Assembly: GCF_021919125.1 (NCBI RefSeq)
Contig: NZ_CP083439.1
Coordinates: forward strand, 434,001 to 498,000
Direction: 5' to 3'
DNA length: 64,000 nt
Origin: Clavibacter sp. A6099
GTDB lineage: Bacteria; Actinomycetota; Actinomycetes; Actinomycetales; Microbacteriaceae
A program made the position numbers and the translations under genes. A model generated the notes under the pieces. It saw only the letters and a list, made by a program, of their open reading frames with translations, was not told the origin of the DNA and did not search any database. Positions 27,995 to 44,730 of this stretch are shown piece after piece (the first letter of the stretch is position 1; the number at the start of each line of letters is the position of its first letter).

Positions 27995-28570
27995 TCAGAA
28001 CAGCCGCGCCCCGCAGGCGTCGGCCTCGTCCTCCTCGCCGAGAGGCCGCTCGGTGCGGAGCACGGCCGGGCCGACCGTGAGGATCCCGTCGCCGAGCGGC
28101 TCGCAGCGCACCCCGCCGCGGCCGCGGAGCGCGCGGAAGGCGCCGGGCGCGAGCATCACGTCCATCCACGCGCACGGGTTCGCCGGCCGGTGGCCCTGGA
28201 ACTCGACCGGCCCGTGACCAGAGTCGATGCTGAAGCGCATGCCGCGCAGCCGGTCGACGTCCGCGCCGCGCAGCAGCACGTTGCGGCGCGTGTCGACGGG
28301 GTCCAGTCCCGCCTCGACGCCGAGCTCCCGCGCCACGCGCTCCACCGACTCGACGGCCATCACCGTGACCGCCGCCATGCGGTGGGCGCGCTGGCCGAAG
28401 TAGCGGTCGCCGACGATCCCGAGCCCGGCGCGCACGCGCACCGAGGACCGCGACGGCGGCTCGCCCGGCTCGTCCCGCGGGCCGTCGGACGGGCGTCCCT
28501 CCAGCCGGTGCACCGGCGAGGCGACGAGGAACGCGATCTCCACGCGGTGCTCGTGCGGGAGATCGGCCAT
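27995..28570 (-). CDS. MOSC domain protein
   Basis: 191 residues. VRAGLGIVGDRYFGQ and VDTRRNVLLRGADVDRL are MOSC signatures, and NPCAWMD contains the conserved cysteine that can carry sulfur for molybdenum-cofactor chemistry. Stand-alone MOSC proteins such as YiiM act on N-hydroxylated compounds. The ATG at 28570 follows TACGAT by six bases; an ATG at 28591 overlaps that hexamer and is less likely. Confidence 0.78.
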   Translation of the reverse strand: MADLPHEHRVEIAFLVASPVHRLEGRPSDGPRDEPGEPPSRSSVRVRAGLGIVGDRYFGQRAHRMAAVTVMAVESVERVARELGVEAGLDPVDTRRNVLLRGADVDRLRGMRFSIDSGHGPVEFQGHRPANPCAWMDVMLAPGAFRALRGRGGVRCEPLGDGILTVGPAVLRTERPLGEEDEADACGARLF

Positions 28571-28576
28571 CCGGGA

Positions 28577-28582
28577 ATCGTA
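28577..28582 (-). promoter_or_regulatory. -10 hexamer TACGAT of the MOSC gene
   Basis: TACGAT, six bases, ATG, the same layout as at the ASCH gene. Confidence 0.5.
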
Positions 28583-28678
28583 CGGGCTCATACCACGGGG
28601 TACGTCGGCCAGGGGCGGTCGCTCCACTCGTGGCTATCATCGATAAGCGGGACGGTGTGACCGCATCCGGGGGGTCAC

Positions 28679-30379
28679 GTGGGCGAGCTTGCTCCCTCCG
28701 ACGTGCGGCGCGATCCGGTGTCCCGTGCCCAGGCCGTGCTCCGGAGCATGACGCTCTCGAAGCCGCTGCACGCGCAGCTGCCCTTCATCCTGAGCCTCGC
28801 CGTCGTCGGCGTCGTCGCGGGCGCGGGCGACCTCGACTCCGTGGCCCGTCCCGGATTCGTCGCGGGCACGGTCGTCGCCGCGATCGTCACCATCGTGGCG
28901 GCCGTCGTCCCCTGGGAGCGCATCGACTCCGACTGGGTGGCCGTGCTGCCGATGGTCGACTTCGTGGCGCTCGCCCTCTGCCACGACGCGATCGGCGACC
29001 AGGTGCCGTCGACCGCCTTCCTCATCGTGTTCCCGGTGATCTGGCTGGCGTACGCCTTCGCCCTGCACGTCCTGTGGCTCGGCGCCCTCGGCACGGCGTC
29101 GGTGCTGGCGCTGCCCTACTTCCGGACGGGCACCGTGCCCGAGGGCACGACCGGCTGGTCGCACCTCGTCGTGCTGCCCGTGGTGATGCTCCTCGTGGCC
29201 GTCGCCGTGAACCTGCTCGCCCAGCAGCTGATCCGCCAGCACGCGCGCCTGGAGGACATGCAGCGCGAGCTGACGGGCACGCTCGTCGACCTGCAGGAGC
29301 GCAACTCGATCATCGACGGCGTGCTCGACGCGATCGACGACACCGTCATCGTGCTCGACGCGACGGGCCGCATCATGCTGCGCAACCGCGCGGCCCGCGA
29401 GCTCATGGCTCTCGCCGGCCCCGTGGATCCGGACGACCCGATGCTCGGCCGCCTCGTCTACGAGGAGGACCGCGTGACGGTCGTGCCGCCCGAGCGCCAG
29501 CTCGTGGCCCGGGCCCGCGCCGGCGAGGTCGTCGGCCGGGAGGTGTACTGGATCGGCGAGGGCGGCGCGCAGAAGGCCGTGCTCTCGTCGCTGTCCCCGC
29601 TCGTGGACGCCTCAGGGCGCATGTTCGGGACGGTCGTGGTCAGCACGGACGTGACGGCGCTCGCCCTCGCGGTCACCGAGCGCGAGGACTTCGTCGCGAG
29701 CGTCTCGCACGAGCTGAAGACGCCGCTCACCTCCATCCTCGGGTACGTCGAGCTCATCGCCGACGACCTCGAGGAGGACGACCTCGACGACCGGATCACC
29801 GCCGCCCGCCTCGCGATCGTGGAGCGCAACGCCCAGCGCCTCCTCGGCCTCATCGGCGACCTCCTCACGGCGGCGCAGCACACGCTCGCCGTCAACCGGA
29901 ACCTCGTCGACGTGGGCGAGATCGTCGAGAACGCGCTCGACGTGATCCGCCCCCACGCGCATGCGAGCGGCGTCACCCTGGTCGAGCCGGACTACGAGGA
30001 GCTGGTCGCGGAGGTCGACGCCGTGCGCATCGGCCAGGTGCTCGACAACCTGCTCAGCAACGCGGTGAAGTACACGCCGGAGGGCGGCACGGTCATCACC
30101 GAGGTGGGGGTCGACGGCGACCACTTCCGCCTGTGCGTGACCGACGACGGCGTGGGCATGTCGGCGGAGGACACGTCGCAGCTGTTCACGCGCTTCTTCC
30201 GCACCAACTCCGCCCGCGCGAGCACGGTCGCGGGCGTGGGGCTCGGCCTCAGCATCACGCGCTCGATCGTGGAGGCGCACGACGGGTCCATCGAGGTGGA
30301 GAGCGCCGTCGGCACGGGCACCTCGATGCGCGTGCGGCTGCCGCTCCGCGTCGGGCGTGCCACGTCGCGGCCGACTTGA
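28679..30379 (+). CDS. membrane sensor histidine kinase with PAS-like domain
   Basis: 566 residues. Five or six membrane helices (about 34-190) form the input region, then a coiled linker ELTGTLVDLQERN, a PAS-like domain (about 212-330), HisKA with FVASVSHELKTPLTSILGY (phospho-accepting His near 344) and HATPase with DNLLSNAVKYTPEGG (N box), DDGVGM and GVGLGLSITRS. All catalytic boxes intact. GTG start with GGGGGG upstream. The probable partners are the Hpt-like protein and the convergent response regulator downstream. Confidence 0.85.
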   Translation: MGELAPSDVRRDPVSRAQAVLRSMTLSKPLHAQLPFILSLAVVGVVAGAGDLDSVARPGFVAGTVVAAIVTIVAAVVPWERIDSDWVAVLPMVDFVALALCHDAIGDQVPSTAFLIVFPVIWLAYAFALHVLWLGALGTASVLALPYFRTGTVPEGTTGWSHLVVLPVVMLLVAVAVNLLAQQLIRQHARLEDMQRELTGTLVDLQERNSIIDGVLDAIDDTVIVLDATGRIMLRNRAARELMALAGPVDPDDPMLGRLVYEEDRVTVVPPERQLVARARAGEVVGREVYWIGEGGAQKAVLSSLSPLVDASGRMFGTVVVSTDVTALALAVTEREDFVASVSHELKTPLTSILGYVELIADDLEEDDLDDRITAARLAIVERNAQRLLGLIGDLLTAAQHTLAVNRNLVDVGEIVENALDVIRPHAHASGVTLVEPDYEELVAEVDAVRIGQVLDNLLSNAVKYTPEGGTVITEVGVDGDHFRLCVTDDGVGMSAEDTSQLFTRFFRTNSARASTVAGVGLGLSITRSIVEAHDGSIEVESAVGTGTSMRVRLPLRVGRATSRPT

Positions 30380-30612
30380 GCTGATCTTGTCCCCACCTTG
30401 ATCCGATCCGGCATCCGGCGGTGTCAGGCTCGAGCAACGACGGGGCCACCCGTCCGACACGAGCGATCGAAGGACCGGATGATCCCCCACGACCACCCCG
30501 CGAGCGGCACCCGAGCCGCGCGCACCGGGTGCCGTGCCGGGTCCACGGATGCGCGGCCGGTCCCCGACGGCGGCCTCCCCGGTCCTTCCGATCGTCTCGT
30601 CGGCGGTCGGGC

Positions 30613-31296
30613 GTGAGCGCCCGAGCCGCCCGTGTCCCGCAGCTCCCCCCGCTCCTCGACGTCCGCGTCCTGGAGCAGCTGCTGGGCGAGCTGTCGGACG
30701 AGCCCGGCCCCGCCCGTCTGTCCGTCGTCCCCGCGACGGGCACCCCCGCTCCGCCCCTCGGCGTTCCCGCGCCGGGCGGCGTGACCCCGCCGCGCGGCCA
30801 CCCCGAGCCGCGCCGTGGGACCCCGTCGTCCGGATCCCCCCATCCGGACGACCGCCTCGCGACCCGTGGTGCCCCCGCACCCGGTCGCGGGCAGGCGCCG
30901 GCCGGATCCCCCCGTCCGGTCGGCGCCCTCACCTCCGCCCCCGCCGCCTCGGAGCCGACGTGCCCCGGAGCGCTCACCGACGGGCAGCACGCCTGCGTCG
31001 ACTTCCTGCGCTTCTTCGTCGACCTGTGGCCGAGCCGCTGGGAGCGCCTCGACGCCGCCGTGCGCGCCGCCGACCGCGCGGCCGCGCTCGACGCGTGCCT
31101 GAGCGTGAAGAGCTCGGCGGCGATGGTGGGAGCGCTCCTGCTTAGCGACGTCGCGGCGCACCTCGAGCTGGCGATCCGCTCCGCCGACCACGCCCGTGCC
31201 GCGGCCATGCTGCCGGAGCTCGGCGAGGTGGGCGAGCGGAGCATGGACGCGATGCGCTCGTGGATCCGCGCGGAGGCGGGACACCCGCCCGACTAG
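30613..31296 (+). CDS. Hpt-like protein without the phospho-accepting histidine
   Basis: 227 residues from a GTG with no clear ribosome site, so the start is uncertain. Residues 12-28 (PPLLDVRVLEQLLGELS) resemble the first helix of an Hpt domain; a Pro/Gly/Arg-rich insert of about 95 residues follows; then FLRFFVDLWPSRWERLDAAV and DACLSVKSSAAMVGALLL resume the four-helix bundle. In Hpt domains the motif is A-H-x-L-K-G-S; here it is C-L-S-V-K-S-S, so the histidine is Leu163. It may bind kinase or regulator without passing phosphate. Confidence 0.6.
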   Translation: MSARAARVPQLPPLLDVRVLEQLLGELSDEPGPARLSVVPATGTPAPPLGVPAPGGVTPPRGHPEPRRGTPSSGSPHPDDRLATRGAPAPGRGQAPAGSPRPVGALTSAPAASEPTCPGALTDGQHACVDFLRFFVDLWPSRWERLDAAVRAADRAAALDACLSVKSSAAMVGALLLSDVAAHLELAIRSADHARAAAMLPELGEVGERSMDAMRSWIRAEAGHPPD

Positions 31297-31411
31297 ACCC
31301 GTGCGCGAGGCCGCCCCGGCGGCCGACGCGCACGCCCGACCGGCTCCCGCGACAGGCCGGTCGGAGGAACGGAGCGGGATCCCACCCGAGGGGACCCCGA
31401 TCCACGGCGCA

Positions 31412-31443
31412 GCTGCCGCGGGACCCACCGGTCCCGCGGCAGC
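31412..31443. terminator. bidirectional terminator between Hpt-like and regulator genes
   Basis: GCTGCCGCGGGACC pairs perfectly over 14 bases with 31430-31443 around a CACC loop. It lies between convergent genes and can serve both. Confidence 0.8.
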
Positions 31444-31494
31444 CCCCTGAGTCCCGTCGGCGAGCGGTGCGAGCAGCGAGCGGCGCCCGGCGCC

Positions 31495-32364
31495 TCAGCC
31501 GCGCGGCGGCGCGAGCCGGTAGCCGACGCCGCGCACCGTCTGGATCCACCGCGCCTCGCGCGGGTCGTCGTGCAGCTTCCGGCGCAGGTTGCCGAGGTGC
31601 ACCTCCACGGCGCGCTCCTCCGGCTCGGTGGACGAGGCGACGGCATAGGAGCCGCTGCGGATGTCGCGCACGAGGTCGCCCTTGGTGCGCACGCGACCGC
31701 CGCTCGCGAGGATCGAGGCCAGCAGGTCGAACTCGGTGCGCGTGAGGTCGACCGGCTCGCCGTCGACCGTGACGTGGCGGGTGCCCTCGTCGAGCTCGAG
31801 GCCGTTGTGACGGAGGACGTCGGCGTCGTCCGTCGCGGCATCGGCCGGTGGGGCGGGCGAGAGGGCGGGCGAGACGACGGCCGTGGTGGCGGAGGACGCG
31901 GGCTGCCTCGGCTCCTCCGCGTCGGCGGCCGTGCCCGGGGCGTCGGATGCGGCCGGCATCCCGGCAGCGGGCGTCGCCGTCGCGTCCCCGCCGCCGCGCG
32001 GTCGGCGCATCATGGCCGAGATGCGGGCGCGGAGCTCGCGCGGACGGAACGGCTTCACGATGTAGTCGTCGGCGCCGGCCTCGAGCCCGAGCAGGGTGTC
32101 GACCTCCTCGCCCTGCGCCGTGAGCATCACGATGTAGGCGTCGCTCACGAGGCGGATGCGGCGCGCGGCCTCGAAGCCGTCGAAGTCGGGCAGGCCCACG
32201 TCGAGCGTGATGACGTCGGGGGAGACCTCCTCGGCCAGCCGCACGCCGTCGGTCGCGGTGCCGGCGGAGTGCACCTCGAAGCCGCCCTGGCGCAGGACCA
32301 CCTCGAGCAGCTGGCGGATGTCGCCGTCGTCCTCGATGACCAGAGCCACACGTCCGCTGTCCAC
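31495..32364 (-). CDS. OmpR/PhoB-type response regulator
   Basis: 289 residues. Receiver domain: acidic pair EDD at 11-13, phospho-acceptor in TLDVGLPD (Asp55), MLTAQ (Thr82) and VKPF (Lys104). Winged helix about 195-288 with VDLTRTEFDLLASILAS, EVHLGNLRRKL and IQTVRGVGYRL. The linker between them is about 70 residues of Ala/Pro/Thr, much longer than usual. GTG start after AGGGGG. Convergent to the kinase/Hpt pair and its likely output. Confidence 0.87.
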   Translation of the reverse strand: MDSGRVALVIEDDGDIRQLLEVVLRQGGFEVHSAGTATDGVRLAEEVSPDVITLDVGLPDFDGFEAARRIRLVSDAYIVMLTAQGEEVDTLLGLEAGADDYIVKPFRPRELRARISAMMRRPRGGGDATATPAAGMPAASDAPGTAADAEEPRQPASSATTAVVSPALSPAPPADAATDDADVLRHNGLELDEGTRHVTVDGEPVDLTRTEFDLLASILASGGRVRTKGDLVRDIRSGSYAVASSTEPEERAVEVHLGNLRRKLHDDPREARWIQTVRGVGYRLAPPRG

Positions 32365-32494
32365 TACCGCCCCCTCGCATGCCGCGTGCGCGGCCGTACC
32401 CCCGGATCCGCGTCAGGCGCGCCGGACCTCCCACGCTAGCGGACCGCCGCACCCCCGCCTCCGCGGCGGCGGGCCGCCGGGCCGGCGCACGGGA

Positions 32495-33130
32495 TCAGGT
32501 GACGGGGGAGGAGCCGGGCACCGCGACGAGCACGAGCGCGGCGCCGAGGATGTACGCCGCGAGCGACGCGCCCACGCCGATGAGGAGCACCAGCCATGGC
32601 CGGGTGCGCCCGCGGATCATGCCGACGAGCGCGACGATGACGGCGATCCCCGTGAGCATCAGCGGGCCCGCGACGGCGATCCCGTAGCCGATCGTGAAGA
32701 GCGAGTCGCGGCAGACGTAGGCGTCGACGTCGCACGCGTCGGTGACGAAGATCAGGCCGAGCCCCATGGCGCCGATCGTGCCGCCCACGATCGCGGCGAC
32801 GAGCATCGAGACGAGCGTGGTGACGAGGACCCGGCGGTCGATCCGGCGGATCCAGCGCGGCACCCAGTCGGGGCCGGGCAGGTCCTCGTCCCGGCGTCCG
32901 CGGTCGTCGTCCCGGCGAGCGGCGGAAGCATCGCGCGCGACGCTCCGCTCCGACGGACGGCGGATGACCTCGGTCGCGTCGGGGTCCCGGGACGACCGGC
33001 GCGGGATGGTCGGCAGCGTGATCGTCGGCAGCTGCGGCAGGCGTCGGCTGCGGGCGGGCGGGCCGGCGGAGCGGCGTCCGCGGTCGGCGCGGCGGCCACG
33101 CTCGGGGGTCGCGTCGTCGTCGGGGGTCAC
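32495..33130 (-). CDS. membrane protein with disordered basic amino end
   Basis: 211 residues: 100 residues rich in Arg/Asp, then RRVLVTTLVSMLVAAIVGGTIG (helix 1), a short external loop with two cysteines (ACDVDAYVC) that may form a disulfide, FTIGYGIAVAGPLMLTGIAVIVAL (helix 2) and WLVLLIGVGASLAAYILGAALVL (helix 3). No family recognised. TAGTCT lies six bases before the GTG. Confidence 0.6.
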   Translation of the reverse strand: MTPDDDATPERGRRADRGRRSAGPPARSRRLPQLPTITLPTIPRRSSRDPDATEVIRRPSERSVARDASAARRDDDRGRRDEDLPGPDWVPRWIRRIDRRVLVTTLVSMLVAAIVGGTIGAMGLGLIFVTDACDVDAYVCRDSLFTIGYGIAVAGPLMLTGIAVIVALVGMIRGRTRPWLVLLIGVGASLAAYILGAALVLVAVPGSSPVT

Positions 33131-44694: not shown

Positions 44695-44730
44695 AGGAGA
44701 GGCGGCGCCCCGGGGGCCGCCGCCTCTCCT
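44695..44730. terminator. terminator between phosphoesterase and CsbD genes
   Basis: AGGAGAGGCGGCG pairs perfectly with 44718-44730 over 13 bases, with a C4/G5-containing loop that may extend the stem. It lies between convergent genes. Confidence 0.8.

What the first reader, a model, noticed from the sequence alone, without database searches (positions are those of the whole stretch)
30613..31296. Hpt-like protein that lost its histidine, between a kinase and a regulator
The four-helix Hpt pattern is recognisable, but the A-H-x-L-K-G-S motif reads C-L-S-V-K-S-S (Leu163 for His), and helices 1 and 2 are split by a 95-residue Pro/Gly/Arg-rich insert. Placed directly after an intact kinase and facing an OmpR-type regulator, it could be a docking inhibitor or scaffold instead of a phosphotransfer protein.
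Basis: partly seen in the sequence, partly recalled or inferred. Interest (0 to 1): 0.7.

Follow-up and report, generated by a model that had tools for sequence, protein, structure and literature searches.

The report
Histidine-less Hpt gene with RNA hairpins
This Clavibacter gene makes a relative of a phosphate-relay protein whose key histidine is missing in all the close relatives examined, it sits beside the same kind of response regulator in most of them, and its message carries conserved RNA hairpins inside the coding sequence, so it looks like a regulator-binding protein under RNA-level control rather than a relay protein.

Summary
ORF 30613-31296 has an Hpt domain (PF01627, 27.6 bits, cut-off 24.6), Leu163 stands at the histidine position, and AlphaFold2 gives a confident four-helix bundle (residues 123-221) with residues 26-115 disordered. 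Two things change the reading. First, the loss is not local: Leu stands there in 17 readable genus copies and 26 loci outside the genus; in 15 class loci of this type it is Leu, Val, Ile or Gly. These Hpts face an OmpR-type regulator in 24 of 26 and 15 of 15 loci, and the regulator keeps its phosphorylation residues. The kinase is directly upstream outside the genus in only 2 of 26. Second, the insert is not just a linker: in Clavibacter its mRNA folds into a chain of C-loop hairpins with compensatory changes, suppressed synonymous variation and more stability than codon-shuffled controls, while the frame stays open in 16 of 17. A different coding hairpin is kept in 11 genomes of two other genera. 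I favour a non-phosphorylatable regulator-binding protein whose synthesis is set by its own coding-region RNA. Binding and RNA function are inferred.

The parts
28679..30379 (+). sensor histidine kinase (PAS, HisKA, HATPase_c), intact H-box SHELKTPL
30375..30400 (+). CTTG three times at 11-bp spacing, overlapping the kinase stop; candidate OmpR-type binding site
   Evidence: conserved in the genus alignment; the pattern occurs at two places in the genome; function inferred
30460..30599 (+). structured leader RNA (helices 1-5), conserved in the genus
   Evidence: z -4.4 for 30447-30612, but only down to -1.8 in 150-nt windows that cut its closing stem; covariation; model R2 found only in Clavibacter
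30602..30630 (+). hairpin with the GTG start codon at its apex
   Evidence: helix 6 of the consensus structure, 96.8% of cells paired, no pair with changes on both sides
30613..31296 (+). histidine-less Hpt-domain protein, 227 aa
30651..30676 (+). hairpin inside the stretch that codes for the capping helix; invariant in all 17 genomes, so without covariation evidence
   Evidence: helix 7
30661..30693 (+). codons of the N-terminal capping helix (residues 17-27)
   Evidence: next to the bundle in relatives outside the genus
30719..30927 (+). array of hairpins with C-run loops (3 to 6 C) in the coding sequence: 30719-30742, 30750-30784, 30786-30819, 30825-30852, 30859-30888, 30894-30927
   Evidence: z -8.6 for 30740-30935; codon-shuffle z -5.2 to -6.7 for the insert in four genomes; covariation; 4-fold-site diversity 0.095 against 0.236 in the core
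30979..31275 (+). four-helix bundle (residues 123-221)
   Evidence: AlphaFold2; PDB Hpt matches
31099..31101 (+). CTG codon of Leu163 at the phospho-His position
31412..31443 (.). perfect 14-bp inverted repeat between the convergent genes, terminator-like without T tract
   Evidence: not scored as a terminator
31495..32364 (-). convergent OmpR/PhoB-type response regulator, D55, T82, K104 intact

Best explanation
The gene belongs to a widespread actinobacterial clade of Hpt-fold proteins that cannot carry a phosphoryl group because the His is replaced, mostly by Leu. The protein most likely binds the receiver domain of the OmpR-type regulator encoded tail to tail with it and thereby raises or lowers the regulator's activity (it works like a pseudo-Hpt). 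In Clavibacter its synthesis is probably set by its own mRNA: a folded leader, a hairpin over the start codon, and a chain of C-loop hairpins that the ribosome must cross to make the Hpt core. Shown: missing His, Hpt profile and predicted fold, regulator linkage, RNA-level conservation together with an open frame. Inferred: binding, direction of the effect, and the regulatory role of the RNA.
For: No His in 17 of 18 genus genomes in which the motif is readable (the 18th, G004, ends at its contig edge) nor in 26 of 26 loci read outside the genus (all Leu; 30 of the 37 places matched were read, 4 of them Clavibacter). Convergent OmpR-type regulator in 24 of 26 family loci and 15 of 15 class loci of this type, the type being chosen by motif. 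Regulator phospho-site residues intact in 36 of 39 neighbours read fully, and in the other 3 as far as read. Profile and fold. RNA: z -4.4 and -8.6; codon-shuffle z -5.2 to -6.7 for the insert against 0.05 to 0.87 for the core in four of the 17 genomes; 10 pairs with changes on both sides against a shuffled mean of 5.0 and 1-4 when slid; 4-fold diversity 0.045-0.095 against 0.16-0.24 in neighbouring coding parts, 0 of 20000 permutations as low. Start-to-core distances take six values, all multiples of 3, in 16 of 16 genomes; between array and core an in-frame start occurs in only 2 of 16. A different coding hairpin in two other genera: 11 of 398 genomes, all 11 inside the hpt coding sequence.
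Against: No binding, expression or RNA-seq data. The RNA models found nothing outside Clavibacter in 199 genomes (only 16 candidates per genome scored). In 150-nt windows of this locus z reaches only -4.7. The first 135 coding bases show a weak and uneven codon-shuffle signal (z -1.7, -2.2, -0.3, -3.5). Outside the genus strong coding-RNA structure is seen in 6 of 26 hpt genes, not all. The structure was derived from the same alignment, 140 of its 165 pairs were counted, and 10 covarying pairs among close relatives is modest. Simple promoter and terminator scans found nothing. Five of ten His-containing class loci also have a weak convergent receiver-domain match (30-35% identity). G007 has two 1-nt gaps in the insert that break the frame, read here as probable sequencing errors. 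An in-frame GTG inside the core occurs in 13 of 16 genomes; a start there would lose most of the first bundle helix.
Confidence: 0.45

Rival explanations
1. Dual-function RNA: the C-loop array is released or acts from the mRNA in trans, its UCCCCCC loops pairing with G-rich ribosome-binding sites as the mycobacterial 6C/B11 sRNA does; the encoded insert is a by-product.
For: Long stems with C-run loops, two of them C6; the C6 hairpin core occurs at two places in the genome, both here; either C-rich loop of B11 represses a target with a G6 tract (PMC10470900, passages read).
Against: No Rfam 6C match here even at E 10, none at E 0.001 in this genome; no promoter or terminator by simple scan; no transcript data; no targets were sought. 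In the other genera the coding hairpins shown do not have C6 loops.
Confidence: 0.22
2. The pseudo-Hpt docks on the upstream histidine kinase and inhibits it.
For: It follows an intact kinase directly in Clavibacter, and a kinase lies upstream in L032 and L033.
Against: Outside the genus a match to this kinase lies upstream in only 2 of 26 loci (flanks of 1.5 kb; in L029 a partial match lies beyond the regulator). In ten of the 26 loci scanned with Pfam the upstream ORF is a GT2 glycosyltransferase (3), an ABC-2 permease (3), a GGDEF protein (2) or unassigned (2). Only the regulator is nearly constant.
Confidence: 0.13
3. The protein still transfers phosphate through another residue (the Ser after the Leu, or another His).
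For: The Ser is invariant in the 23 rows of A6; H126 is present in all five Clavibacter rows of A7.
Against: Hpt chemistry needs His (established knowledge); H126 is not a conserved column in A6; the usual Gly at H+4 is Ser here, and large, hydrophobic or charged residues at H+4 nearly abolish phospho-acceptance in Ypd1 (PMC6341664, abstract read; Ser is small, so this is weak evidence).
Confidence: 0.05
4. The hairpins are a by-product of G+C-rich Pro/Gly/Arg codons, without function.
For: G+C near 77% makes stable folds common.
Against: Protein-preserving codon shuffles reach the observed energy in 0 of 100 for the insert in each of four genomes, and the neighbouring core shows no excess; synonymous diversity is suppressed; compensatory changes.
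Confidence: 0.04

Closest known systems
Hpt domain, PF01627 (e.g. 7c1i HptB, 3myf)
   Same: Capping helix plus four-helix bundle, alignable motif helix, small protein beside two-component genes
   Different: No phospho-accepting His, H+4 Gly is Ser, and in Clavibacter an insert between the cap helix and the bundle
Plant pseudo-Hpt AHP6
   Same: Hpt-fold protein with the His replaced (PMC3572949, passages read)
   Different: Asn in AHP6 (recalled), Leu here; AHP6 works beside canonical Hpts (recalled), whereas this genome has no other Pfam Hpt match; bacterial, linked to an OmpR-type regulator
6C RNA (RF01066) / mycobacterial B11
   Same: Stem-loops with runs of C in the loop, Actinobacteria
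   Different: Here inside an open reading frame with more hairpins; no covariance-model match; transcript unknown

Membership tests
Hpt domain (PF01627) | profile score over the curated cut-off | tested here: met
   27.6 bits against 24.6
Hpt domain (PF01627) | helical bundle fold of Hpt | tested here: met
Hpt domain (phosphotransfer protein) | phosphorylatable His in the motif helix | tested here: not met
   Leu163 here; no His in 17 readable genus copies or 26 loci read outside the genus
Hpt domain (phosphotransfer protein) | small residue, usually Gly, at H+4 | tested here: inconclusive
   Ser167: small but not Gly
pseudo-Hpt (AHP6-like, by function) | Hpt fold without the His | tested here: met
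pseudo-Hpt (AHP6-like, by function) | canonical Hpt in the same cell to compete with | tested here: not met
   only one Pfam Hpt match in the genome at E 0.001
pseudo-Hpt (AHP6-like, by function) | inhibits a phosphorelay by binding its partner | not testable with these tools
   needs binding and transfer assays
6C RNA (RF01066) | covariance-model match | tested here: not met
   none at E 10 in 28001-33000, none in the genome at E 0.001
6C RNA (RF01066) | stem-loops with six C in the loop | tested here: met
   30825-30852 and 30894-30927
6C RNA (RF01066) | separate small transcript | not testable with these tools
   no RNA-seq here; simple promoter and terminator scans empty

The most novel reading that the evidence does not exclude
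The pseudo-Hpt gene is one locus with two products on the same bases: a regulator-binding protein and a C-loop regulatory RNA embedded in its own reading frame, so that ribosomes crossing the array couple how much protein is made to how much of the RNA is free to act. Different genera would have evolved different coding hairpins in the same gene.
Probability: 0.18. Interest if true: 0.85.

Novelty: new variant of a known kind. Interest (0 to 1): 0.6.

Why it matters
Pseudo-Hpt proteins are known from plants; here is a bacterial clade in which the histidine-less form is common (in 120 genomes of one family, 14 of 20 Pfam Hpt matches are of this type, 3 clearly carry His, 1 carries Asn and 2 are unclear) and is tied to one kind of regulator that keeps its phosphorylation site. 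It offers a test of whether an Hpt fold can control a regulator by binding alone. The RNA part is a clear case of RNA-structure selection inside an open reading frame, seen in different forms in different genera.

Tried and rejected
6C RNA membership: rejected. A start after the insert, so that the insert would be an untranslated RNA gene: judged unlikely, since between array and core an in-frame start occurs in only 2 of 16 genomes (GTG +168 is inside the structured region and missing in L014). Sequence-specific His loss: rejected. Codon or G+C artefact: rejected. The RNA outside the genus by covariance model: nothing found, with limited sensitivity. C-loop hairpins in the 26 outside loci: scattered single ones, no array. 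Tree of 54 Hpt rows: the His label needs 2 changes (0 of 500 shuffles as low), deep branches weak, so one origin of the His-less state is possible, not shown. Literature: searches listed no title on a bacterial His-less Hpt clade or a Clavibacter RNA of this kind; only their listings, passages of two papers and one abstract with outline were read.

Rows dropped: G004 (L019, contig end) from the motif count and all alignments; G007 (L018, insert gaps); L037, L047 and L049 from A6 (the first two have an in-frame stop in the stretch taken, L049 is close to L048); 25 of the 165 predicted pairs (long-range or weak ones) from the structure counted; the codon-shuffle test was run on 4 of 17 genomes. 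Of 37 places matched, 30 were given as loci and read; of 76 places, 30 were given as loci, of which 27 were new and read.

Full report

Is the lost His local? No. All 18 genus genomes searched hold a match (G004 only in part); the motif is readable in 17 and none has His. A genus profile found the gene in 36 of 199 genomes of the bacterial family, 18 of 85 genera. In the 30 loci taken from that search (of 37 places; 4 Clavibacter, 26 others) the position is Leu in all. A broader profile found matches in 50 of 394 genomes of the class, 27 of 138 genera. Of the 27 new class loci read (L074-L100; 76 places matched), 15 are of the same type by motif (12 Leu, 1 Val, 1 Ile, 1 Gly at the position), 2 are another His-less group inside large open frames (L090, L093) and 10 carry His. 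In 120 genomes of the family Pfam's own Hpt model gave 20 matches: 14 of this type (13 Leu, 1 Gly), 3 with a clear His motif, 1 with Asn 70 bases from a contig end, and 2 unclear, one of which (L130) has a His-like motif in an open frame of 67 codons. The tree separates His and non-His rows with 2 changes but weak deep support.

What goes with it? Outside the genus the regulator lies downstream on the opposite strand in 24 of 26 loci (L028 and L041 partial matches) and in 15 of 15 class loci of this type (L075, L077, L080 and L092 partial). Its two acidic residues, phospho-Asp, Thr/Ser and Lys are intact in 36 of 39 neighbours read fully, and in the other 3 as far as read. A match to this kinase lies upstream in only 2 of the 26. 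In the ten loci scanned with Pfam the upstream ORF is a GT2 glycosyltransferase (3), an ABC-2 permease (3), a GGDEF protein (2) or unassigned (2). In several loci the likely hpt start overlaps the upstream stop. Against uniqueness: 5 of the 10 His-carrying class loci also face a weak receiver-domain match (30-35% identity).

The insert. Relatives outside the genus run directly from the cap helix to the bundle, so the insert of about 95 residues is a Clavibacter feature. In 16 genomes the distance from start to core takes six values, all multiples of three; the start is GTG in 16 of 16 and ATG in G007, whose insert has two 1-nt gaps. Between array and core an in-frame start occurs in 2 of 16 genomes; a GTG inside the core occurs in 13 of 16 but would lose most of the first bundle helix. 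If the whole core is made, the ribosome crosses the array.

The RNA. The insert and the leader before the gene are conserved at the DNA level. Four-fold sites vary at 0.045 (30613-30735) and 0.095 (30736-30930), against 0.223 in the kinase part read, 0.236 in the Hpt core and 0.162 in the regulator; 0 of 20000 permutations are as low. The RNA 30740-30935 folds with z -8.6 and the leader 30447-30612 with z -4.4; in sliding 150-nt windows the signal is weaker, -4.7 at best and -1.8 over the leader. With the protein held fixed by codon shuffling, in four of the 17 genomes, the insert has z -5.9, -5.3, -6.7 and -5.2 and the core 0.05 to 0.87, while the first 135 coding bases give -1.7, -2.2, -0.3 and -3.5. 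On 17 sequences a 14-helix structure of 140 pairs pairs 98.1% of cells; 10 pairs show changes on both sides (shuffled mean 5.0, 1 of 500 shuffles as high, slid versions 1-4) and 24 cells do (shuffled mean 8.2). That structure came from the same alignment. Helix 6 puts the start codon in a hairpin apex, but without covariation. The loops of the array are runs of 3 to 6 C. This resembles 6C/B11 RNA, whose C-rich loops act on a G6 tract (PMC10470900, passages), but no 6C model match exists here. Models of the array and leader hit only Clavibacter (4 of 199 genomes each, all four Clavibacter).

Other genera. Sliding folds show strong structure in the 5' part of the hpt gene in several relatives. 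Codon shuffles confirm it in 6 of 26 hpt genes (minimum z -3 or lower) against 0 of 21 regulator genes; the median of the mean z is -0.85 against 0.01. In two genera a 39-nt stretch of perfect hairpin codes for part of the second helix. I searched it in 398 genomes with three positions left free and up to 3 mismatches allowed at the other 36: it occurs in 11 (10 of one genus, 1 of another; 4 of the 11 had given the pattern), all with 0 mismatches, one base pair being A-U in 8 and G-C in 3. All 11 lie in the hpt coding sequence. The peptide there is conserved too, so part of this may be protein constraint, but the A-U to G-C exchange changes one amino acid on its 5' side and keeps the pair. So hairpins inside this coding sequence arose in more than one genus with different sequences, which is unexplained.

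Mechanism. The steps shown are the missing acceptor, the profile and predicted fold, the regulator linkage and the RNA-level selection. Inferred are that the protein binds the receiver domain and so tunes the regulator, and that the hairpins set how much of it is made. Three CTTG repeats at 11-bp spacing just before the leader (30375-30400; two places in the genome) suggest, but do not show, feedback by the regulator.

Novelty. The protein works like a pseudo-Hpt, as far as can be inferred, and is an Hpt relative by profile, but it fails the defining His test, so it is not filed as a phosphotransfer protein. The RNA array is not filed under 6C. The searches listed under Tried and rejected listed no report of either; that is no proof of absence.

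On re-reading the calls I corrected the number of start-to-core distances (six, not seven), added the free positions of the hairpin search, marked L130 as unclear, and confirmed that all 11 hairpins lie in hpt.

Noticed in passing
30375-30400: Three CTTG units at 11-bp spacing overlapping the kinase stop, conserved in the genus; one other place in the genome fits the pattern.
   Followed up: partly
31412-31443: Perfect 14-bp inverted repeat with a 4-nt loop between the convergent genes, perhaps a two-way terminator without T tract.
   Followed up: no
L129 (G136), 70 bases from a contig end: An Hpt match with Asn in place of the His (ANKLKGG), the exchange recalled from plant AHP6, similar to His-containing L112 and L113.
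   Followed up: no
L101-L111: A 39-nt coding hairpin in the hpt gene of 11 genomes of two genera, no mismatch at 36 fixed positions, with one A-U/G-C exchange.
   Followed up: partly
L034, L036, L042, L048: The likely hpt start overlaps the stop of an upstream gene (GTGTGA or TTTGA junctions), a GT2 glycosyltransferase in the two that were scanned (L034, L048), suggesting translational coupling.
   Followed up: partly
L022, L023: Sub-threshold 6C RNA matches elsewhere in two Clavibacter genomes (45.6 and 41.2 bits against 47).
   Followed up: no
44695-44730: A 13-bp hairpin elsewhere in the window, not studied.
   Followed up: no
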